Source of the DNA: a virus
IMG/VR virus record: IMGVR_UViG_3300045747_000569
Span: 1 to 21,885 of that record
Length of the DNA stretch: 21,885 bases
Direction: 5' to 3' (one strand)
Part shown: one piece after another, positions 233 through 20,400 of the stretch
Layout of the letters: each line of letters opens with the position of its first letter
Numbering within the stretch: the first letter of the stretch is position 1
Made by a program: the position numbers and the translations under genes
The notes under the pieces: model-generated
Databases searched by the model: none
What the model was told of the DNA's origin: nothing
Seen by the model: the letters and a program-made list of their open reading frames with translations, nothing else

Positions 233-781
233 ATGGGCGGTCGAGGTAGCGGCGGACGGCGCGTCGGGTCGGGACAGAAGAAGAAGTTGGCGGTCGTCGT
301 CCGGCATCCGAGCGCCCCGGCGGACGCAGGCGCTGTGATCGACGCCATGGACCCGCCGGCCGAGCTCCAGGGGGACGCGGCGGAGCTGGCGAACCTCGTC
401 TCACAGCTCGCGTTCCTGCAGCAGGCGTCAGGGCCGGGCGAGCCGAACCCGCAGATCGCCGAGATCCAGGCGCACGTGAACGAACTCGAGGCCCACGCCC
501 ACGCGCTGGCGATCTGGCAGGAACTGGCCCCGCAGGCGACCGCGGCGCGCACGTTGACGCCGGCGACGTCGGCCGCGTTCGTGATGCTCTGCCGGGCCGT
601 CGTGCTCGAGCGGGCGCTCTCCGCCTCGCCGTCGACCGCCGGCGGCCCGAATCACCGGGGGCTGCAGCATCGGGTGGCGACCTGGATGAAGGACTTCTGT
701 CTGTCGCCGTTTGGGAAGCCGCTGTCTGAGGCGACGCCGGCCGCGGCCTCCGTCAGTCGGTGGGGTAGTGCGCTGAAATGA
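233..781 (+). CDS. Terminase small subunit, P27-like
   Basis: The 182-aa protein would recognise phage DNA and deliver it to the large terminase at the portal. The Gly/Arg-rich start (MGGRGSGGRR) is typical of P27-type small terminases. Residues about 125-160 (LAIWQELAPQ, then a helical stretch with LTPATSAAF and a Cys-Arg-containing helix) match the central pattern of that family. A helical region with QLAFLQQ and AHVNELEAHAHAL around residues 60-120 may be a coiled coil or multimerisation segment. The ATG is preceded by AGGTGA six bases upstream. The stop overlaps the next start as ATGA. The family assignment is recalled from pattern, not from a search. Confidence 0.75.
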   Translation: MGGRGSGGRRVGSGQKKKLAVVVRHPSAPADAGAVIDAMDPPAELQGDAAELANLVSQLAFLQQASGPGEPNPQIAEIQAHVNELEAHAHALAIWQELAPQATAARTLTPATSAAFVMLCRAVVLERALSASPSTAGGPNHRGLQHRVATWMKDFCLSPFGKPLSEATPAAASVSRWGSALK

Positions 782-1689
782 GCACATCCGCCGGCGCGCG
801 CGCGGTCCGGCTCATCAATCTGCTCACGCATTCGTCGGGTACGTTCGGCCGCCAGCCGTTCAACCTGCGGCCGTGGCAGCAGCGCATCATCCGGAAGCTC
901 TTTCGCACGCGGCCGGACGGCCTCCGGATCTATCGCACCTGTCTGTTGATGTTGCCGAGGAAGAACGGGAAGACCGAGCTCGCCGCGGCCATCGCGATCT
1001 ACTGCCTCCTCTTCGACCAGCCGCCGGAAATTGGCGGGGAAATCTATCTGGCCGCGGCGGACAAGGAGCAGGCCTCGAAGGTGTTCCTCGCGATGGTCGC
1101 GATGATCGAGAACGATGCGGAACTGGACGCGCAGGTCGAGATCATCCGGTCTACGTTCCGGATCACCCATCGCGCGAGCGGGAGCTTCTGCCGGGTCATC
1201 TCCGCGGAGGCCTACACGGCGCATTCCTTCAACGCGAGCGTGGTCATCTACGACGAGCTCCACTGCGCGCCGACGCGTGATCTCTGGGACGTCCTGGTCA
1301 CCAGCCAGGGCGCTCGCGCGCAGCCGCTCATGATCGCCATCTCGACCGCCGGCTTCGACAAGCAGTCGATCCTCTACGAGCTTTACAGCCACGCGAAGCG
1401 CGTGCTCGAGAACCCGTCCCTCGATCCGACGTTTCTCCCGATCATCTACGAGATGCCCGTCGACGCGGACTGGACCGATGAACGCGAGTGGCGCAAGGCC
1501 AATCCCGCGCTGGGGGATTTCCGCAGCCTCGAAGAAATGCGGACCTCGAACCAGCGCGCGCAGCAGATCCCCGCGTTTGAAATGGCCTGGCGGCGGCTGT
1601 ACGGCAACCAGTGGACGGAAAGCGCCGAACGGTGGGTGAGTCTCGCCGCCTGGGATGTCTGTAACGTCTGCGCGGAGCCTGCCGCATGA
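778..1689 (+). CDS. Terminase large subunit, N-terminal ATPase part (split gene)
   Basis: This 303-aa ORF encodes the packaging motor ATPase of an HK97-type (Terminase_1) large terminase. Visible motifs are the adenine-binding region FNLRPWQQ (28-35), the Walker A-like loop LPRKNGKTE (59-67), the Walker B strand VVIYDE (155-160) with the catalytic Glu, and the coupling motif AISTAG (187-192). The family is normally one chain of about 500-560 aa with a C-terminal nuclease. Here the reading frame ends at residue 303, just after the AWDVCNV linker region, and the nuclease follows as a separate ORF in another frame. The stop (TGA) overlaps the ATG of that ORF. It is either a true two-chain terminase or the result of a one-base change in the phage or in the assembly. 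Confidence 0.85.
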   Translation: MSTSAGARAVRLINLLTHSSGTFGRQPFNLRPWQQRIIRKLFRTRPDGLRIYRTCLLMLPRKNGKTELAAAIAIYCLLFDQPPEIGGEIYLAAADKEQASKVFLAMVAMIENDAELDAQVEIIRSTFRITHRASGSFCRVISAEAYTAHSFNASVVIYDELHCAPTRDLWDVLVTSQGARAQPLMIAISTAGFDKQSILYELYSHAKRVLENPSLDPTFLPIIYEMPVDADWTDEREWRKANPALGDFRSLEEMRTSNQRAQQIPAFEMAWRRLYGNQWTESAERWVSLAAWDVCNVCAEPAA

Positions 1690-2348
1690 CCCGCACCGAG
1701 TTCCGCGCTCGACTCAAAGGCCGACTCTGCTACGTGGGGATGGACCTCTCGTCCACGAAGGATCTGACCGCCCTGGCCGCCGTCTTTCCCGACGACGAAG
1801 GTCCGGGCTTCGACGTGCTGGCCGAGTTCTTCATGCCGCACGACAACATCCTCGAGCGCGTGACACGGGACCGGGTGCCGTACGACCAGTGGGAGCGGGA
1901 CGGGTTCATCCTCGCGACGCCGGGCAACCGCGTGGACTACCAGGTCGTCCGCCGGGTGCTGAACGAGTGGGCGCTCGAGTTCTCGATGCAGGAAGTGGCG
2001 TTTGACCCCTGGAACGCGACCGGCTTGATTCAGGAGCTCCAGGACCAGGACGGGTTCACCTGTGTCCCGATCCGGCAGGGGTTCCGATCCTTGTCGGCCC
2101 CGACGAAGTCGCTCGAAACGGCTATCCTCACGACGCGCCTGCGGCATGATGGACACCCCGTGCTCCGGTGGTGCATCGGGAACGCCGCGGCTGAGCAGGA
2201 CGCGACAGGGAATATCAAGCTGTCGAAGAAAGTCTCGACCGAACGGATCGACGGGGCCGCCGCGCTGGTCAATGCCATAGACCGAATGGACCGGCACGCC
2301 GGCGCCGACATGGGGCCTGCACAGGATCCCTACCTGGTGGTCGCCTGA
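1686..2348 (+). CDS. Terminase large subunit, C-terminal nuclease part (split gene)
   Basis: This 220-aa ORF carries the RNase H-like headful/cos nuclease domain of the large terminase. The three expected acidic residues are visible: D20 in YVGMDLSSTKDLTAL, D107 in EVAFDPWNA, and D189 in RIDGAAALVNA. The start ATG lies in an ATGA overlap with the ATPase ORF. It has GGAG at 1674-1677, eight bases upstream, so independent or coupled initiation is believable. The ORF is in the -1 frame relative to the ATPase ORF. An in-frame stop at 1662-1664 limits any frameshift to the following 25 bases, where no slippery run is seen. Together the two parts total 523 aa, the normal length of the intact protein. 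Confidence 0.85.
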   Translation: MTRTEFRARLKGRLCYVGMDLSSTKDLTALAAVFPDDEGPGFDVLAEFFMPHDNILERVTRDRVPYDQWERDGFILATPGNRVDYQVVRRVLNEWALEFSMQEVAFDPWNATGLIQELQDQDGFTCVPIRQGFRSLSAPTKSLETAILTTRLRHDGHPVLRWCIGNAAAEQDATGNIKLSKKVSTERIDGAAALVNAIDRMDRHAGADMGPAQDPYLVVA

Positions 2349-2528
2349 ATGAAGCGCACGCATCCCGGCCGCCCGCGCGTCGACGACGACGACGAGACCG
2401 TCGAGGTAGGCGTGTCGATCCCCTTGAAGCAATACGACGGCTACGCGACCCGGGCCCTGCGGGAGGACGTGAGCGTGCCCGAGATCATCCGCCGCGAGCT
2501 GCAGGGGAAGCCCCGGCGCCTCGAATAA
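2349..2528 (+). CDS. Small ribbon-helix-helix DNA-binding protein
   Basis: The 59-aa protein begins with a basic segment (MKRTHPGRPRV), an Asp/Glu run, then TVEVGVSIPLKQYDGYATRA and REDVSVPEIIRRELQG. That is a beta strand with alternating residues followed by two helices, with SVPEIIRREL as the second helix, as in CopG/Arc-type regulators. Such proteins bind DNA as dimers through the strand. The ATG directly follows the TGA of the terminase nuclease ORF with no spacer. A regulator inside a packaging operon, followed by a hairpin, could act on late transcription or on packaging. No target operator was identified. Confidence 0.65.
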   Translation: MKRTHPGRPRVDDDDETVEVGVSIPLKQYDGYATRALREDVSVPEIIRRELQGKPRRLE

Positions 2529-11580: not shown

Positions 11581-14217
11581 GTGGCTGGCTCGAACCCCGC
11601 CCTCATCGTCCGCGTGGCCGCCACGATCGAGGAACTGCGGCGGAATCTCGCCGAGGGTGTCTCGCAGATCGAAACCACCACGGCGGCCATGGGCAAACTG
11701 GCGGCGTCGTTCTCCGGCGACAAGTTGATCCAGGCGGCCCAGAACGTGACGGCCGCGGTGAACTCGATCGGCGGGGCCTCCAAGCTCACCGATGCGGAAG
11801 CCGCCCGCGTCAATGCGACGCTGGAAAAGGCGCTCGAGAAGTATGAGGCGCTCGGTCGCGTCGCCCCGCCAGGGATGCGAGAGTTGGCCGATGAAACCAA
11901 GCGCGTGGACACCGAGAGTAGTGGGCTGACGGAGACGGTCAAGCAGCTCGCGCTCGGCTTTCTCGCGATGTTCACGGCACGGGCGGCGTTCACCTTCGTG
12001 AAGGCGACGCTCGAGGAAGCCTCGGCGCTCCAGGATCTCAGTCGGCAGACACGCATCAACGTCGAAGACCTCCAACTCCTCGCGGGCGCGATGTCCCAGT
12101 TCGGAGTGGACGCCGACACGCTCGGGAAGGGGCTGTTCAAACTGTCGCGCGGCATTGCCGGCGGTGACGAGTCGGTGGCGACGGGACTCCACATGATGGG
12201 GATGTCCCTGAAGGACCTCGACGGCATCAACGGCAAGGAATTGTTCCTCAAGATTGAAGGCGGGCTGGCCACGTTACAGGGCGGCCTGCGGGATACGGCG
12301 GCGGCGGATCTCTTCGGGGGGCGGTTGGGGGCGGCCATGGCGGGGGCCTCGGAAGGGATCGGCGGCGCGATCGCGACCTGGGAACGCTTGAACCAGGTCG
12401 CGAGCTCCGAGTCGGTCGAGGCGCTGGAGACGTTCAATGAGGCGATCAAGCGGGCCAACAAGAACCTCGACGCCATAGCCGCGAACATGATCGGTCCCGT
12501 CGCGCAGGGCTTCAATGTCGTGATTGCGGCGGCCGAGAAGGGCGCGCCGAAATGGGATCTGTTCGTCGCGATGGTGAAGGACTTCGCGGCGAGCAATGTC
12601 GTGACCGGGGCCAGCGCGTCCAACCTGGCCACGCTCCTCGACGGCCTCAACACGAAAACGACTGAGGGTGCGGCCGCGCACCAGAAACTCGCTGAACAAG
12701 CGCGGGCCTTGGACGCCGCCGGTGGTCCGCTCAAGGACGGCATGACGCTCCAACTCGGGTTGCATGGGCAGATTGCGGCGGCGATCGATACGCGGACCCA
12801 GGCCGAGAAGTTCATGGCGGCCCTCGAAGCGGACGCGACCGTCGCGTTGACCGCGGCGCAGCGCGCCAACCTCGCCCACCTGGCCGAGATTGGGGCCCTC
12901 ACGGCCTCGAACGCGGCCGCGATCGGCGTCAATGGGGCGCAGTTCGAGCTCTACAAGGCATCGATCGACCACGCCAAGACCGCGACCGAGGCCCTCGCGA
13001 AGGCCACCCGCGACCTGGACACCGAGACCGTCACGCAGTTGAAGAATGCGCTCAAGGGGATGGCGGAGGTCGAGAAGGCGCGGCTCGATGGTGCGATGGG
13101 GAACTACCGCGAGCAGATCCGCGCCGTCCAGGATCTGGACATCGCCGAGCAGGCGGCGTTCAAGCGGACCTTCGAGTCACTCGACGATGAAGTCAAACGC
13201 CGCGGGGTGCTCGGCGAGAGCGTCACCGCCCACATCAAGCGCATGGACGAGGAGGCGGCGCTCCAGACCAAACTCGCGGGCGTGACGAACACGGCGATCC
13301 TCTCGGAGTTCGATGCGCAGACGAAGCTCAACGCGTCCTGGGGGCTCGATGCCTACGGCGCCCTGAAGCTGCAGAAGACCGCCCGCGATGAGTACCTCGC
13401 GGATTTGGCGACGCTCCATCAAGCCAAGGTGGACGGGGTCTCGCAGTCGAAAGAGGAGCAGATCCTCCTCGACACGTACCTCGGAAAACTGGCGGCGATC
13501 CCGCCGGTCATGGATCAAGTCAAGGCCGCCGGCGGTCGGGTCGCGGACAGCTTGACCGAGATGACGGGGACGGCCGGCGCCTTCGGGATGGCGATGATCG
13601 ACACGTCCGGCAAATCGATCAGCGCCCTCGCGGCGCTCACGGACGTGTCGAAGGGCTACACGGACGCCGTCCGGGCCGAAATGGAAATGCTCGTCTCCGA
13701 CTCCGTGCGCATGGAACAGGGGATGGCCGCGCAGTCCGCGCTCTTTTTCGAGCAGATGCGGAATCAAGCCGCGTCCCAGTCCAACTTTGCGATCCAAGGC
13801 GGCACGAACGCCGCGGCATCCCAGGCGCTGACGCAAGTCAACGCGGACGTGTTCGGACCCTACGGCCAGATGCCGCTCTCGATGGAGACGTACAACGCGC
13901 TGTCCGCGGAGGTGCAGCGGCGGATGTTCGATCTCGGTTTCGGGGCGACGCCGGTCGCGCTCAACATGCGGCGCGACAGCGGGGGACCCGTCTCGGCGGG
14001 CCAGTCCTACTACATCGGCACGGGCGCCCAGCCCGAGCTCTTCACCCCGTCCTCGAGCGGCTTCATGACGCCGGCGGGCAGCGGGGGCACGACCGTCAAC
14101 GTGACGATCCAGGTCACGCAACCGCTCGGGACCCCGGACGCGATCGCCCGAGCCGTCGGCGAGGCCCTGAACGCGCGGATGCGCAGCCTCGGTGATCGCA
14201 CCCCATGGCAGTCCTAA
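11581..14217 (+). CDS. Tail tape measure protein
   Basis: This 878-aa protein starts at a GTG directly after the upstream stop. Its length would set the tail length; at the roughly 0.15 nm per residue usually assumed, that is on the order of 130 nm. It is largely helical with Ala/Lys/Glu heptads. It has a hydrophobic segment LALGFLAMFTARAAFTFV at about 123-140, and a middle segment (AFGMAMIDTSGKSISALAAL). The C-terminus has the common tape-measure ending RRDSGGPVSAGQSYYIGTGAQPEL followed by FTPSSSGFMTPAGSGG and a beta-like segment. No peptidoglycan hydrolase domain was noticed. It overlaps the hub gene by 13 nt. Confidence 0.88.
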   Translation: MAGSNPALIVRVAATIEELRRNLAEGVSQIETTTAAMGKLAASFSGDKLIQAAQNVTAAVNSIGGASKLTDAEAARVNATLEKALEKYEALGRVAPPGMRELADETKRVDTESSGLTETVKQLALGFLAMFTARAAFTFVKATLEEASALQDLSRQTRINVEDLQLLAGAMSQFGVDADTLGKGLFKLSRGIAGGDESVATGLHMMGMSLKDLDGINGKELFLKIEGGLATLQGGLRDTAAADLFGGRLGAAMAGASEGIGGAIATWERLNQVASSESVEALETFNEAIKRANKNLDAIAANMIGPVAQGFNVVIAAAEKGAPKWDLFVAMVKDFAASNVVTGASASNLATLLDGLNTKTTEGAAAHQKLAEQARALDAAGGPLKDGMTLQLGLHGQIAAAIDTRTQAEKFMAALEADATVALTAAQRANLAHLAEIGALTASNAAAIGVNGAQFELYKASIDHAKTATEALAKATRDLDTETVTQLKNALKGMAEVEKARLDGAMGNYREQIRAVQDLDIAEQAAFKRTFESLDDEVKRRGVLGESVTAHIKRMDEEAALQTKLAGVTNTAILSEFDAQTKLNASWGLDAYGALKLQKTARDEYLADLATLHQAKVDGVSQSKEEQILLDTYLGKLAAIPPVMDQVKAAGGRVADSLTEMTGTAGAFGMAMIDTSGKSISALAALTDVSKGYTDAVRAEMEMLVSDSVRMEQGMAAQSALFFEQMRNQAASQSNFAIQGGTNAAASQALTQVNADVFGPYGQMPLSMETYNALSAEVQRRMFDLGFGATPVALNMRRDSGGPVSAGQSYYIGTGAQPELFTPSSSGFMTPAGSGGTTVNVTIQVTQPLGTPDAIARAVGEALNARMRSLGDRTPWQS

Positions 14218-17200
14218 CCGCCGCTCGGATCGGCGTGGCGCGGGTTGGAGGCACCCGGCTCGGCTATCCGATTGCCCAGGGCGTCGTCCTGCCCACGTAC
14301 GCGCTGCTCGGGGTGGCGCGGCTGGGGGCGACGCGGCTGAACTGGCATTCGCCGAACGTCTTCGTCGCGATCAACGGCGTGCACGTGGGGACGGCGCGGG
14401 ACGTGGACACGGCCAAAGTCCGGTACGGGACGCCGACGATCACCGGGTCGCTGGGGGCCACGCCGAGCACGGCCGCGTGTACGACGCAAGGGTTCCGGCC
14501 GGTCGAGGGGCACGAGGTCATCATCACGCTCGGCTCGAAGAACAATCTGCGGCGCGAGTTTGCCGGCCAGATCCTCTCGTCGACGCGGGGCTATGTCGGC
14601 ACGCCCGAGAACTTCCATGACCAGCTCCGCCTGATCGATTACACCTGGGGGCTGAACAAGCGCAAGGTCCGGAACCGGTATCTCTCGACGACGGTGGCCG
14701 CCGTCGCGGCGGACCTCCTGGCGAACGCGCCGGGCTACACCCTGTCCGTCGCCGCGGACATCGGCGCCGAGCGCCTCGACGAGATCACGTTCACGGAGCA
14801 GGACCTGACCGTCTGCCTCTCGCAACTCGTGACTCGGGTCGGCGGGGAGTGGGTGTGCGACTACCACAAAGTGGTGCGCCTCTTCTACGAAGACGCGACG
14901 CAGACGGCGCCGACGATCCTGAACGCGGTGCACACGAGCCTGGCCAACGTCTCGGTGACGCGCGACCTCAGCCAAGTGCTGACGCGGGTCTACGTCGAGG
15001 GCGGCGGGGTCAACGTGGCGGCGTCGCTCGCGGTCGGCGAAACGATCCTGCCGCTCGACGGGGACCCGGCGTGGTATCAGGCCGGCGGCGGCGTCGTCGT
15101 CTGCGGTCCGCAGCGCATCACGTACACCGGCGTGTCGGGCGGCTCGGGGGGCGGTCTCGTCGGCACCGGCGCGTCGCCGTCGGGGAGTCCGGTTGGCGCG
15201 CTCACGAGTGGCGCCGGCATCGAGACGGGCGCGCACCAGTACACCGTGACCTTCGTCACCGCGGCCGGCGAGTCGATCAGCGGACCTGTCGCCACGATCA
15301 CGACGGGCGTCACCGTCGAGCCGCTGACCGCGCCGACGACCGGCGCGCCCACCATCGGCACCGGACCCAATCCGGGGAGTCATGACTACGCCGTGTCCTT
15401 CGTGACGGCGAGCGGCGAGACGCTGCCGGGGCCACGCGCGACGCAGGCGACGGCGCTGTCTGCCGAGCCTGCCGCCGCGCCGACCGTGAACACGCCAACG
15501 CTGGGCGCCGGCGTGACGGACGGTCAGCACGAGTACGCCGTCACGAACGTGACGGCTATCGGCGAGACGACGCCGGGACCGATCAGCGCGCAAGTCACCG
15601 CGGGATCGCTGCCGGGGCCGGCGACGGCGCCGACACTCGGCGCGGGCACTCCGGGCACCGGGCCGGATGCAGGCGTGCACGAGTACGCGGTGACGTTCGT
15701 CACGGCGCTGGGCGAGACGACGGCGGGCGCGCGTGTGACGGCCGCGAACCTCTTCGCGGTGCCGCCGGCGACGGCGCCATCGGCGAGCAATCCGATGAGC
15801 GGCATCGGACCGGAGCCGGGGACGTACGACTACCTCGCGACCTTCGTCACGCCGAGCGGCGAGACGACCGCGGGACCGGCGGGGACGGGTTCAACGAGCC
15901 TCTCCGCGGCGCCCACGACCGCGCCCGCGGCCGGCAGTCCAGCCGTCGGCGTCGGCATCGAGAACGGCACCGTTGACTACGTGGTGACGTTTGGCGCGTC
16001 CGGTGACTCGCAGTACGCCGCGCGCGAGACGACCGCGAGCGCCGTTAGTAACGCGGTGACGTGCGGCGTCCAACTGCTGCCGGTTGCCACGACCGACCTG
16101 TGGCCGACCTTCAGGGCAGAAGCCATCGGCGGCTCCGGCGGCGGACTGTCCGGCATCTATCAGTACGCGTTCACACGCGTGACCGCTTTCGGCGAGACGA
16201 CGGCCAATCCCTCGACCGGAACAACCAGCAGCGTAGTCACAGGATATTTCGTCACCATTCCGTCGGCGCCTGCGGGTTGTACCGCAACCAATCTGTACCG
16301 GACGGTCGGCAACGGATCGCAACTCAAGCTCGCCGCGACGCTGCCGGTGGCGGGCGGCATGACGTTCTACGCCGACACGCTGCCGGATGCGTCGCTCGGT
16401 GCGGCGCCGCCGACGACGAACACCGCGAACGTCGCGCACAATCAAGTCGTCGTCACCCTGCCGTCGAGTCCCGACCCCTACGTCACGATCCGCGGACTGT
16501 ATCGGCGGTTCAACGGCGCGGGGCCATTCCTCCGAGTCGCGACTCTCGGAAACAGTTGGCCGCCGACCTACACCGATGCCGTTTCGAACGCCAGTCTCGG
16601 GGCCGCGCCGCCGACCGTCAACACCGCGTACTTGCAGCAACTCCAAGTCTCGACCTCGGTGGGCGAGGCGCAAGTAACGGCGCGGCGCATCTACCGGCGG
16701 ACCTCCGGCGTTGGGACGTTCAAGCTCGCCGGTACGGTCTACAACAACGCCGCGACGGCGTGGACCGACACGACGCCGAACGCCAGTCTCGGCGCCGAGC
16801 CGCCGACCGTGAACACGGCGAGCCTTCAGCGGACGATTCCGCTCACCGCGATTCCGACCGGACCGAGCGGCACGACGGCGCGCAAACTCTACCGGACCGC
16901 GGCGGGCGCTTCACAGTTGAAGCTCCTCGCGACTCTCTCCGGCAACTACACGACGACGGCGACGGATGCGACGCCAGACGCGGGTCTCGGGGCGGATGCG
17001 CCGACGGTCGGCACCGCCGCGGCGAACGTGATCGCGCTCGCGGACATCCCGACCGGCGACAGCACGGTCACGAGCCGCAACCTCTATCGGCGCTCGGGCG
17101 GGCTGGGACTGAAGTTCCTCGCGACCCTGCCGGGGAACTCCAGTCACACCTACACGGACACGACGCCGAACGCCGGTCTCGGCGCCGCGGTGCCGGTCGC

Positions 17201-18272
17201 GAGTACGGCGTACGTGCAGCGGATCGCGCTGACCGCCATCCCAAAGGGCGGCGCGCTCGTCACTGCCCGGAAGGTGTACCGGACCGCGGCCGGCGGAAGC
17301 CAACTCAAGCTCTTGACCACGCTGGCCGACAACACGACGACCGCCTTCGCGGACTGGACGACGGATGCCGCGCTCGGGGCGAACGCGCCCACGGTCAACA
17401 CGGCGACAGCAAACCGCGTCGCGCTGACGAGTATCCCGGTCGGCGCCGCCGCGGTCACGAGCCGCAAGGTCTATCGCACCGTGGCCGGCGGGTCACAACT
17501 GAAGCTCTTGACCACGCTCGCGGACAACGTGACGAACGTCTACGCCGACAGCGCCGCCGATGCGACGCTCGGCGCGAACGTCCCGACGTCGGACACGTCC
17601 GGCCTCACGCAGCCGCAGGGGAACGTCCTCGCCGGCTCGACGTCGCTCCAGATTGCGAGCATCGGCGCGTTTCCGCCGCAGGGCTGGGCCGTCATCGGCA
17701 ACGGTCAACAGGTCATTCGCTACACGAGCATCGCGGGGAACGTGCTGACCGGCATCCCGGCGAGCGGCGACGGGGCGATCCTCGCGTCGATCACCTTCAA
17801 CAGCAGCGTCACCGCGGCGCCGGCGCTGACCGGCATCCCGGCGAGCGGACCCGGCTCGATTCGGTTCCGCTGTCTCAAAGGCGACGGCGTGAACTTGTGG
17901 GCGCGCGTCGACGACGTTCCGGCGCAGACGGCGCTCGCCGCGGTCATCGGCGGGGACGGCATCCAAGAGGACACCCTCCAAGACCGGCGCCTGTCCTACA
18001 CCGAAGCGGTTGCGCGGGGCCAAGCGTGGTTGGCGCTTAAGCGCGACGTCGAGATCAGCCTCCGCTACTCGACGCGCGACCTCAACGCGCGCGTCGGTCG
18101 GACGCAGGCGGTCAACTTGGGCGAGCCGTTCAACGTCGTCGCGGACTTCATGATCCAGACGGTCACGGAGTCGGCCTTTATGGCGAACCTGATGCCGACG
18201 TTCGACGTCACGGCGTGCAGCGTCCGGTATTCCTTCGACGAGTTTTTGAGGCAGATCAAAAAGGCGGCATGA
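14205..18272 (+). CDS. Large tail hub/baseplate protein with two internal repeat arrays
   Basis: The 1355-aa protein would form the tail tip hub. Residues 1-312 contain paired segments RIGVARVGGTRLGY and LLGVARLGATRLNW, then a hub domain with RNRYLSTTVAAVAADLL, DEITFTEQDLTVCLSQLVTR and DLSQVLTRVYVEGGG. The conserved C-terminal part resumes after about 1222: RVDDVPAQTALAAVIGGDGI, RLSYTEAVARGQAWLALK and STRDLNARVGRTQAVNL. Between the two lie seven FN3-like units with a 49-aa period, seven units of another type with a period of about 65 aa, and two LTGIPASG copies. Similar phage tail proteins lack most of this middle. It starts inside the tape measure gene. Confidence 0.75.
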   Translation: MAVLTAARIGVARVGGTRLGYPIAQGVVLPTYALLGVARLGATRLNWHSPNVFVAINGVHVGTARDVDTAKVRYGTPTITGSLGATPSTAACTTQGFRPVEGHEVIITLGSKNNLRREFAGQILSSTRGYVGTPENFHDQLRLIDYTWGLNKRKVRNRYLSTTVAAVAADLLANAPGYTLSVAADIGAERLDEITFTEQDLTVCLSQLVTRVGGEWVCDYHKVVRLFYEDATQTAPTILNAVHTSLANVSVTRDLSQVLTRVYVEGGGVNVAASLAVGETILPLDGDPAWYQAGGGVVVCGPQRITYTGVSGGSGGGLVGTGASPSGSPVGALTSGAGIETGAHQYTVTFVTAAGESISGPVATITTGVTVEPLTAPTTGAPTIGTGPNPGSHDYAVSFVTASGETLPGPRATQATALSAEPAAAPTVNTPTLGAGVTDGQHEYAVTNVTAIGETTPGPISAQVTAGSLPGPATAPTLGAGTPGTGPDAGVHEYAVTFVTALGETTAGARVTAANLFAVPPATAPSASNPMSGIGPEPGTYDYLATFVTPSGETTAGPAGTGSTSLSAAPTTAPAAGSPAVGVGIENGTVDYVVTFGASGDSQYAARETTASAVSNAVTCGVQLLPVATTDLWPTFRAEAIGGSGGGLSGIYQYAFTRVTAFGETTANPSTGTTSSVVTGYFVTIPSAPAGCTATNLYRTVGNGSQLKLAATLPVAGGMTFYADTLPDASLGAAPPTTNTANVAHNQVVVTLPSSPDPYVTIRGLYRRFNGAGPFLRVATLGNSWPPTYTDAVSNASLGAAPPTVNTAYLQQLQVSTSVGEAQVTARRIYRRTSGVGTFKLAGTVYNNAATAWTDTTPNASLGAEPPTVNTASLQRTIPLTAIPTGPSGTTARKLYRTAAGASQLKLLATLSGNYTTTATDATPDAGLGADAPTVGTAAANVIALADIPTGDSTVTSRNLYRRSGGLGLKFLATLPGNSSHTYTDTTPNAGLGAAVPVASTAYVQRIALTAIPKGGALVTARKVYRTAAGGSQLKLLTTLADNTTTAFADWTTDAALGANAPTVNTATANRVALTSIPVGAAAVTSRKVYRTVAGGSQLKLLTTLADNVTNVYADSAADATLGANVPTSDTSGLTQPQGNVLAGSTSLQIASIGAFPPQGWAVIGNGQQVIRYTSIAGNVLTGIPASGDGAILASITFNSSVTAAPALTGIPASGPGSIRFRCLKGDGVNLWARVDDVPAQTALAAVIGGDGIQEDTLQDRRLSYTEAVARGQAWLALKRDVEISLRYSTRDLNARVGRTQAVNLGEPFNVVADFMIQTVTESAFMANLMPTFDVTACSVRYSFDEFLRQIKKAA
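15172..16260 (+). repeat. Seven FN3-like repeats inside the hub gene (array A)
   Basis: Units are aligned on a Tyr-centred strand (H-x-Y-x-V-T-F-V-T-A-x-G-E-T-x-x-G-P). They begin at 15234, 15381, 15528, 15678, 15825, 15972 and 16158. The period is 147 nt (49 aa) for most steps and longer for the last one. Units 6 and 7 are degenerate. Each unit looks like a small fibronectin-like or Ig-like beta module, probably displayed on the tail tip for adhesion. The consensus is stronger in protein than in DNA, pointing to old duplication. Confidence 0.8.
16287..17600 (+). repeat. Seven second-type beta repeats inside the hub gene (array B)
   Basis: Units start at 16287, 16491, 16683, 16881, 17076, 17268 and 17463, with a period of 192-204 nt (64-68 aa). 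Each has the order (R/T)xxYRT, a QLKLLxTL strand, a Tyr/Phe-Thr-Asp segment, LGAxxPTVNTA and a final LTxIPxG before xVTxRK. Units 6 and 7 are the most alike (RKVYRT ... SQLKLLTTLADN in both), so the last duplication looks recent. The last copy is cut short. Thr and Ala are very frequent, consistent with an extended adhesin fold. Confidence 0.8.
17745..17848 (+). repeat. Two exact 23-bp direct repeats (LTGIPASG) in the hub gene
   Basis: The same 23 bases (beginning CTGACCGGCATC and ending GAGCGG) occur at 17745-17767 and 17826-17848, encoding LTGIPASG twice, 27 codons apart. Identity at the DNA level suggests a recent partial duplication near the end of array B. It lies between the second beta module (ending at about 17740) and the resumed hub domain at about 17870. 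Confidence 0.7.
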
Positions 18273-19412: not shown

Positions 19413-19909
19413 ACCAACCCAACGTCCCCGCGGTCGCGCCTGTCGCCGTCGCGCCGAACCCCGGCCAACTCGTGCAGATCGGGACAACGAGCGCGCCGAC
19501 GCCGACGGCGCCTGTCGTGTCGGTCGGCCTGAACTGGGAAGTGATCATCCCGCTCGTCTTCGCCGGACTCGGTCTGCTCCTCGCGCAAGTGCTGAACTAC
19601 TTGCAGTCTCGTAAAACCGCCGCGAAGGTGGATGACGCCGCCGCCGTGACCGCGGCGCATAACGCGACGCAGAGCACGAAGCTCCAGCGCATCGAAGTGC
19701 TCGTGGACGGCCGGTATGGGCAAGTGCTTCAAGAACTCGCCGCGGTCAAGCGCCTGCTCGCCGCGGAGTCGGGACTCGCCTCCGACAAAACAAAGGCCGC
19801 CGTCGCGCAGGCACGCGCCGACGAGCAAGAGGCGCGCGTCGCCGTCGCGGACACCGTGCCGCCGCCGGCCGTGGTCGACGCGATCACCCTGCCGCCGGAG
19901 CCGCGGTGA
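19409..19909 (+). CDS. One-pass membrane protein with coiled coil, holin-like candidate
   Basis: This 166-aa protein has a Pro/Ala-rich N-terminal stretch (1-38), then one transmembrane segment (WEVIIPLVFAGLGLLLAQVL, about 43-62). A coiled-coil region follows, with KLQRIEVLVDGRYGQVLQEL (about 91-110), and then a charged Ala-rich tail with a PPPAVVDAITLPPEPR end. It sits directly before the muramidase and overlaps it by 4 nt. That is the usual holin place, but the single TM segment and long coiled coil also fit a spanin-like or anchoring protein. Identity is undecided. Confidence 0.6.
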   Translation: MNQPNVPAVAPVAVAPNPGQLVQIGTTSAPTPTAPVVSVGLNWEVIIPLVFAGLGLLLAQVLNYLQSRKTAAKVDDAAAVTAAHNATQSTKLQRIEVLVDGRYGQVLQELAAVKRLLAAESGLASDKTKAAVAQARADEQEARVAVADTVPPPAVVDAITLPPEPR

Positions 19910-20400
19910 CGACCGACGAACTGATTGACGGACTTCTGACGCGCGAAGGTCCGAACACGCCGCCTTATCTCGACCCGCACGACCGCGGCGGCCGGACGGC
20001 GTGGGGCATCTCCGAGCGCGCGCATCCGGAGGCGTGGCAACCCGGACCGCCGACACGCGCCCAAGCGCGCGTCATTTACTGGACCGACTACGTGCAGCCG
20101 TTCGCGGTGCTCGACGTCGACGACCGCATCCGGACGGCGCTCGTCGACGATGCGGTGCTCTCCGGCGTGGGCACGTCGATCCGGTCGCTCCAACGCGTGG
20201 TCAGCACGACGCCCGACGGCGTCATCGGACCGGAGACGCTCGCGCGAGTGCACGCGCAAGCGCGCGCGACCGGCGGCCGGCTGCTCGTGCGACTCGTGCA
20301 GGCGCGGACGCATCGACTCGCGCGGATCGTGCAAACGGACCCGACCCAACTCGACTCGCTTGTCGGCTGGGTCGACCGGAGTCTCTCCATGCTCGGCTGA
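19906..20400 (+). CDS. Endolysin: GH108-type muramidase with PG-binding domain
   Basis: The 164-aa enzyme would cut peptidoglycan glycan strands at lysis. The N-terminal part shows the GH108 pattern: REGP (catalytic Glu14), then YLDPHDRGGRTAWGI with the conserved Asp/Gly-Gly-Thr-x-Trp-Gly. The C-terminal half carries a PG-binding-3-like segment (SIRSLQRVVSTTPDGVIGPE then TLARV). It lacks a signal peptide and would need a holin or pinholin. The GTG start overlaps the upstream stop. The family is usually about 160-190 aa, so this is full length. Confidence 0.85.
   Translation: MTTDELIDGLLTREGPNTPPYLDPHDRGGRTAWGISERAHPEAWQPGPPTRAQARVIYWTDYVQPFAVLDVDDRIRTALVDDAVLSGVGTSIRSLQRVVSTTPDGVIGPETLARVHAQARATGGRLLVRLVQARTHRLARIVQTDPTQLDSLVGWVDRSLSMLG

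What the first reader, a model, noticed from the sequence alone, without database searches (positions are those of the whole stretch)
1662..1700. Large terminase split cleanly between ATPase and nuclease
The ATPase part (motifs at 59-192 of the first ORF) stops at 1687-1689, and the RNase H-like nuclease starts at 1686 in another frame. The junction lies at the domain linker, there is a GGAG eight bases upstream of the second ATG, and the combined size (523 aa) is that of the intact protein. Family knowledge says the motor is normally one chain. A two-chain motor with coupled translation would be unusual; a one-base assembly error or recent mutation is the main alternative. No intein, intron or homing endonuclease sits at the junction.
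Basis: partly seen in the sequence, partly recalled or inferred. Interest (0 to 1): 0.75.

Follow-up and report, generated by a model that had tools for sequence, protein, structure and literature searches.

The report
Packaging motor made in two pieces
In this uncultured phage and many relatives, the protein that pumps DNA into the virus head is made as two separate chains, motor and cutter, from overlapping genes, and in some relatives other small genes have slipped in between them, so the two halves must work without being joined.

Summary
A TerL ATPase ORF (778-1689, 303 aa) and a TerL RNase H-like nuclease ORF (1686-2348, 220 aa, -1 frame) overlap by ATGA at the domain joint. It is not an assembly error: among 146 distinct related loci, 43 have TerL split at the same joint. 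Twenty-two have the same 4-nt overlap. Nineteen have 46-865 nt inserted exactly at the joint; 18 of these inserts carry an ORF of 37-290 aa (17 unrelated sequences), nearly all overlapping the ATPase stop by 4 nt and the nuclease start by 4 or 14 nt. Inserts are present, absent or swapped between close relatives. Both chains are under purifying selection; no frameshift signal, intron or intein was found. Best explanation: a non-covalent two-chain packaging motor translated from coupled cistrons, whose joint also serves as a recombination point and small-gene slot. Two-gene TerL is already reported for Arthrobacter cluster AY phages and annotated in Gordonia phages Phishy and Meyran, so the split itself is a new variant of a known kind. 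The gene slot and the split/fused switching appear unreported in the text I could search. Complex formation and activity are untested.

The parts
233..781 (+). probable terminase small subunit; its stop overlaps the ATPase start by ATGA (778-781)
   Evidence: position just upstream of TerL and a weak PHROG 83 match, E 9e-4; overlap read from sequence
778..1689 (+). terminase large subunit, ATPase chain (303 aa), ending with the lid element RW-x5-WD and a short tail
   Evidence: PF03354 3e-20, PHROG 9 1.7e-86; Walker A PRKNGKT and Walker B VVIYDE in the sequence; dN/dS 0.14-0.16 against L004/L006
1674..1677 (+). GGAG upstream of the nuclease start; particular to this phage, not conserved
   Evidence: sequence; Shine-Dalgarno test across split loci negative
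1686..1689 (+). ATGA: start of the nuclease cistron overlapping the stop of the ATPase cistron; site of inserted genes in relatives
1686..2348 (+). terminase large subunit, RNase H-like nuclease chain (220 aa), with N-terminal head MTRTEFRARLKGR typical of split forms
   Evidence: PF20441 8e-35, PHROG 2699 1e-63; head compared across loci; dN/dS 0.15 against L004/L006

Best explanation
The phage makes its large terminase as two proteins. Translation of the ATPase cistron ends in ATGA and the ribosome restarts at the overlapping ATG to make the nuclease. The chains then assemble non-covalently on the portal into a motor otherwise like HK97 TerL. The break lies in the loop after the RW-x5-WD element of the ATPase lid and before the first strand of the nuclease. 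The ATPase tail probably docks on the nuclease in trans, replacing the covalent linker. Because the joint is already a cistron boundary, it tolerates insertion of small genes, exchange of either half, and re-fusion. Shown by sequence: two cistrons, the same joint in many relatives, inserts, purifying selection, recombination. Inferred: translational coupling, trans docking, packaging function.
For: 43 distinct loci split at one joint. 22 with 4-nt overlap. 18 inserts with ORFs, 17 of them starting on the ATPase-overlapping ATG, open frames unlikely by chance (about 1e-19 combined). Empty/filled pair L020/L022 and swapped inserts L047/L049, L054/L196 with 87-94% identical flanks. dN/dS at most 0.16 for both chains. 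Break lies in a loop of a pLDDT 93 model of the fused relative L002. Plaque-forming AY phages have the same two-gene arrangement.
Against: No protein-level evidence. In T4, separated ATPase and nuclease domains keep their activities but lose translocation (PMC9958956), so a free two-chain motor needs an unproven interface. No conserved Shine-Dalgarno site. A close relative, L002, is fused.
Confidence: 0.83

Rival explanations
1. Assembly or sequencing error, or a private recent frameshift in this one phage.
For: One base would join the frames in the window; L001, the only near-identical record, is 100% identical over 5345 nt and may not be independent; L002 is fused.
Against: 43 distinct loci are split at the same joint, including L016/L029, two records 98.6% identical with 15 mismatches, and 18 loci with an ORF between the halves.
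Confidence: 0.01
2. Programmed -1 frameshifting joins the chains, so that some or all TerL is one polypeptide.
For: The nuclease lies in the -1 frame with a 4-nt overlap.
Against: No in-frame X XXY YYZ heptamer in the last 75 nt of the ATPase in any of 24 overlap loci; impossible in the insert-bearing loci; the nuclease frame carries its own conserved ATG/GTG start.
Confidence: 0.04
3. The gene is interrupted by an intron or intein and is rejoined by splicing.
For: Intron-split terL is known in Jug phages and Pectobacterium phage CB7 (PMC12363816, PMC7344957).
Against: The window has no intervening sequence; no Rfam match in the window or in the insert-bearing loci scanned; inserts are filled by ORFs overlapping both neighbours; no intein or homing-endonuclease match.
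Confidence: 0.02
4. The split is decay: the nuclease half is dispensable, or both halves are remnants in defective prophages.
For: All close relatives are metagenomic contigs; host and infectivity are unknown.
Against: Purifying selection on both chains; conserved active-site residues; ordinary portal, S49 protease and capsid genes follow in order.
Confidence: 0.03

Closest known systems
Two-gene TerL of Arthrobacter cluster AY phages (BillyTP, BlueShadow, Auxilium, Faja) and Gordonia phages Phishy and Meyran
   Same: ATPase and nuclease domains encoded by two consecutive genes (PMC11920828, PMC12820723); the BillyTP ATPase chain also ends shortly after a W-x5-W element
   Different: Only marginal sequence similarity (32% over 59 aa, E 0.001); joint is a 17-nt overlap in BillyTP, 14-nt in Meyran, a 28-nt gap in Phishy; no gene lies between the halves in the three records read
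HK97 TerL (PDB 6z6d)
   Same: Closest solved relative of the fused homologue L002 by sequence (9e-73) and by fold search; same domains and order
   Different: One chain, with a short linker and a beta-strand joining lid to nuclease (PMC9410871)
Intron-split terL (Jug phages, Pectobacterium phage CB7) and trans-spliced terminase of mirusviruses
   Same: Terminase gene in pieces
   Different: There RNA splicing rejoins the message (PMC12363816, PMC7344957, PMC12768974); here no intron was found and the pieces are separate cistrons
T4 gp17 with domains separated in the laboratory
   Same: ATPase and nuclease as separate chains
   Different: The separated T4 domains lost DNA translocation (PMC9958956); the natural split forms are conserved by selection

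Membership tests
HK97-type large terminase (TerL) | TerL ATPase domain with Walker motifs | tested here: met
   PF03354 3e-20, above the curated cutoff; K65 and D159/E160 invariant in 16 split ATPases
HK97-type large terminase (TerL) | RNase H-like nuclease domain with three catalytic aspartates | tested here: met
   PF20441 8e-35; D313, D400, D482 of L002, matching HK97 D302, D388, D471 by alignment, invariant in 95 fused relatives; the motifs GMDLSS, AFDPWN and ERIDG are present in the window chain
HK97-type large terminase (TerL) | both domains in one polypeptide | tested here: not met
   separate ORFs in different frames; by sequence only
Two-gene TerL as in Arthrobacter AY phages | ATPase and nuclease in consecutive genes divided at the interdomain joint | tested here: met
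   architecture only, common descent of the split is not claimed
Programmed -1 frameshift gene | in-frame slippery heptamer before the stop | tested here: not met
   0 of 24 overlap loci
Intron-split terL | group I or II intron between the parts | tested here: not met
   no intervening sequence in the window; no Rfam match in the window or the insert-bearing loci scanned
Functional two-chain packaging motor | the two chains bind each other and package DNA | not testable with these tools
   needs complex prediction or biochemistry

The most novel reading that the evidence does not exclude
The joint of a two-chain packaging motor is a standing slot for exchangeable accessory genes whose products act on packaging (for example by bridging the two chains, timing the switch from translocation to cutting, or choosing which DNA is packaged), so that these phages vary their motor by swapping a small third protein.
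Probability: 0.12. Interest if true: 0.85.

Novelty: new variant of a known kind. Interest (0 to 1): 0.62.

Why it matters
Models of viral DNA packaging give the covalent hinge between ATPase and nuclease a central role, and T4 domains separated in the laboratory do not translocate DNA. Here is a natural lineage in which fused and split motors occur among close relatives, so whether the linker is needed, and what replaces it, becomes directly testable with pairs such as L002/L003 or L014/L016. The slot with many unrelated small genes also shows how a core machine gene can become a site of gene gain.

Tried and rejected
Assembly error, frameshifting, intron/intein and pseudogene readings: rejected as given under rivals. 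A conserved Shine-Dalgarno site driving reinitiation: rejected, the energy equals that of shuffled sequence. One vertical origin of the split in the ATPase tree: rejected by the AU test, p = 7e-5; the same test on the nuclease tree did not finish. Function of the inserted ORFs: Pfam and PHROGs gave nothing firm; the largest (290 aa, L170/L172) matches PHROG 15934 of unknown function. Host: the best genome relatives found are about 50% identical and fused, so no host is assigned. The first structure model, with 10 sequences, was poor (pLDDT 71); a 95-sequence alignment gave pLDDT 93. Three pattern-scan loci (L167, L174, L187) have no TerL match and were discarded.

Full report
What is there. 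The window is a 21,885-base virus record. The terminase ORFs are followed by portal, S49 protease, HK97-fold capsid and head-completion genes. The TerL ATPase ORF (778-1689) and the TerL nuclease ORF (1686-2348) overlap by the four bases ATGA, the second in the -1 frame. The preceding probable small-terminase ORF overlaps the ATPase start in the same way. Pfam TerL_nuclease is divided between the two ORFs at profile positions 85 and 89 with nothing important lost.

Is it an error? No. Searching IMG/VR with each chain, with an alignment of split ATPases and with a junction pattern, and GTDB genomes with the alignment, gave 198 loci. Classified by script, 146 are distinct by the last 150 nt of the ATPase match: 43 split and 103 fused. 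Among those with at least 60% ATPase identity there are 43 split and 61 fused; in searches seeded with the ATPase only, 29 split and 58 fused. These are not prevalence estimates, because the searches start from split queries and one pattern was built to find split joints. Every split falls at the same place, after WD-x-C and a short tail often ending VV-x-A, and before a nuclease that starts close to MTR-x-[ED][FY]R-x2-L-x-GRR. Twenty-two loci have a 4-nt ATGA/GTGA overlap, one 14 nt, one 1 nt, and nineteen have an insert.

The slot. The inserts are 46-865 nt. All except the 46-nt one (L183) carry an ORF of 37-290 aa. Seventeen of these 18 start at the codon that overlaps the ATPase stop by 4 nt, and end overlapping the nuclease start by 4 or 14 nt; L017 is the exception. 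The 18 ORFs are 17 unrelated sequences. The open frames are unlikely by chance: combined shuffle probability about 1e-19 over 16 loci, although most of the short ones are not significant singly, and the independence of the loci is assumed. L020 (empty) and L022 (filled) have 92% and 87% identical flanks. L047/L049 (87 and 92%) and L054/L196 (89 and 94%) carry different inserts in like flanks. The filled site therefore looks like ATGA-ORF-ATGA where the empty site has one ATGA. This suggests insertion or exchange at the short repeat, which is inference.

Selection and recombination. dN/dS is 0.005-0.16 for the ATPase and 0-0.16 for the nuclease in pairs with measurable dS. On the ATPase tree the split/fused state needs 13-15 changes, and one split clade is rejected, p 7e-5. 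The nuclease tree needs 12-13 changes. The halves have been exchanged: L014 (fused) and L016 (split) are neighbours in the ATPase tree but not in the nuclease tree, while L028 and L170 have nucleases 91% identical in DNA and ATPases only 73%. L042 is fused yet keeps both split hallmarks (CSVVGSALSVAEFRARLRGR), which reads as a re-fusion. Because the split forms share their tail and head, I favour few origins followed by exchange and re-fusion, but many independent splits are not excluded.

Structure. The fused relative L002 (88% and 81% identical to the two chains) was modelled at pLDDT 93, pTM 0.77 with 95 sequences. The break lies in the stretch between helix 288-292 and nuclease strand 307-313, outside both cores. 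HK97 TerL 6z6d is its closest solved structure by sequence and by fold search, although the whole-chain superposition is loose (TM about 0.5, rmsd 10), which may reflect a different domain orientation. In HK97 a short linker and a beta-strand packed on the nuclease hairpin join the lid to the nuclease (PMC9410871). The RW-x5-WD element, invariant in 16 split ATPases (R285, W286, W292, D293), stays on the ATPase chain. I propose that this tail docks on the nuclease in trans; this is untested.

Known precedents. [quoted passage not shown] also PMC12820723). BillyTP formed plaques and was sequenced at 906x; its ATPase chain ends shortly after a W-x5-W element (TWLRDGLW). Gordonia phages Phishy and Meyran are annotated likewise. 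So a two-gene TerL is compatible with a viable phage. In contrast, separated T4 domains lost translocation (PMC9958956). I found no report of genes inserted between the halves or of split/fused switching, but only openly licensed text was searched, by words.

Verdict. The split is real, recurrent and maintained by selection: a new variant of a known architecture, with an apparently unreported gene slot at the joint. Complex formation and packaging remain to be shown.

Noticed in passing
window 14205-18272 (+): A 1355-aa ORF has a long middle part made of repeated segments (VTFVTALGETT..., RKVYRTAAGGSQLKLLTTLADN...), probably a tail-associated protein with diverged repeats.
   Followed up: no
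window 2349-2528 (+): A 59-aa ORF (MKRTHPGRPRVDDDDETVEVGVSIPLKQYDGYATRALREDVSVPEIIRRELQGKPRRLE) starts directly after the nuclease stop (TGAATG); it looks like a small ribbon-helix-helix-type protein, read by eye only.
   Followed up: no
L056:1579-1752: The 57-aa ORF in the TerL slot of L056 has a sub-threshold match to the phage major capsid family (PF05065, 21.0 bits vs cutoff 24.2), ending in a capsid-like NGTGTGTPKGIL motif; possibly a capsid-gene fragment.
   Followed up: no
L054:2844-3215, L188:2111-2635, L049:1412-1693: Several slot ORFs are rich in CxxC pairs (zinc-ribbon-like), but unrelated in sequence; Pfam matches are below cutoff.
   Followed up: partly
L170/L172 slot ORF, 290 aa: The largest slot ORF matches PHROG 15934 (unknown function, 4e-19) and hypothetical proteins of Streptomyces phage Yara and Corynebacterium phage phi16, which lie elsewhere in those genomes.
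   Followed up: partly
window 19906-20400 (+): Probable endolysin: glycosyl hydrolase 108 plus peptidoglycan-binding domain.
   Followed up: no
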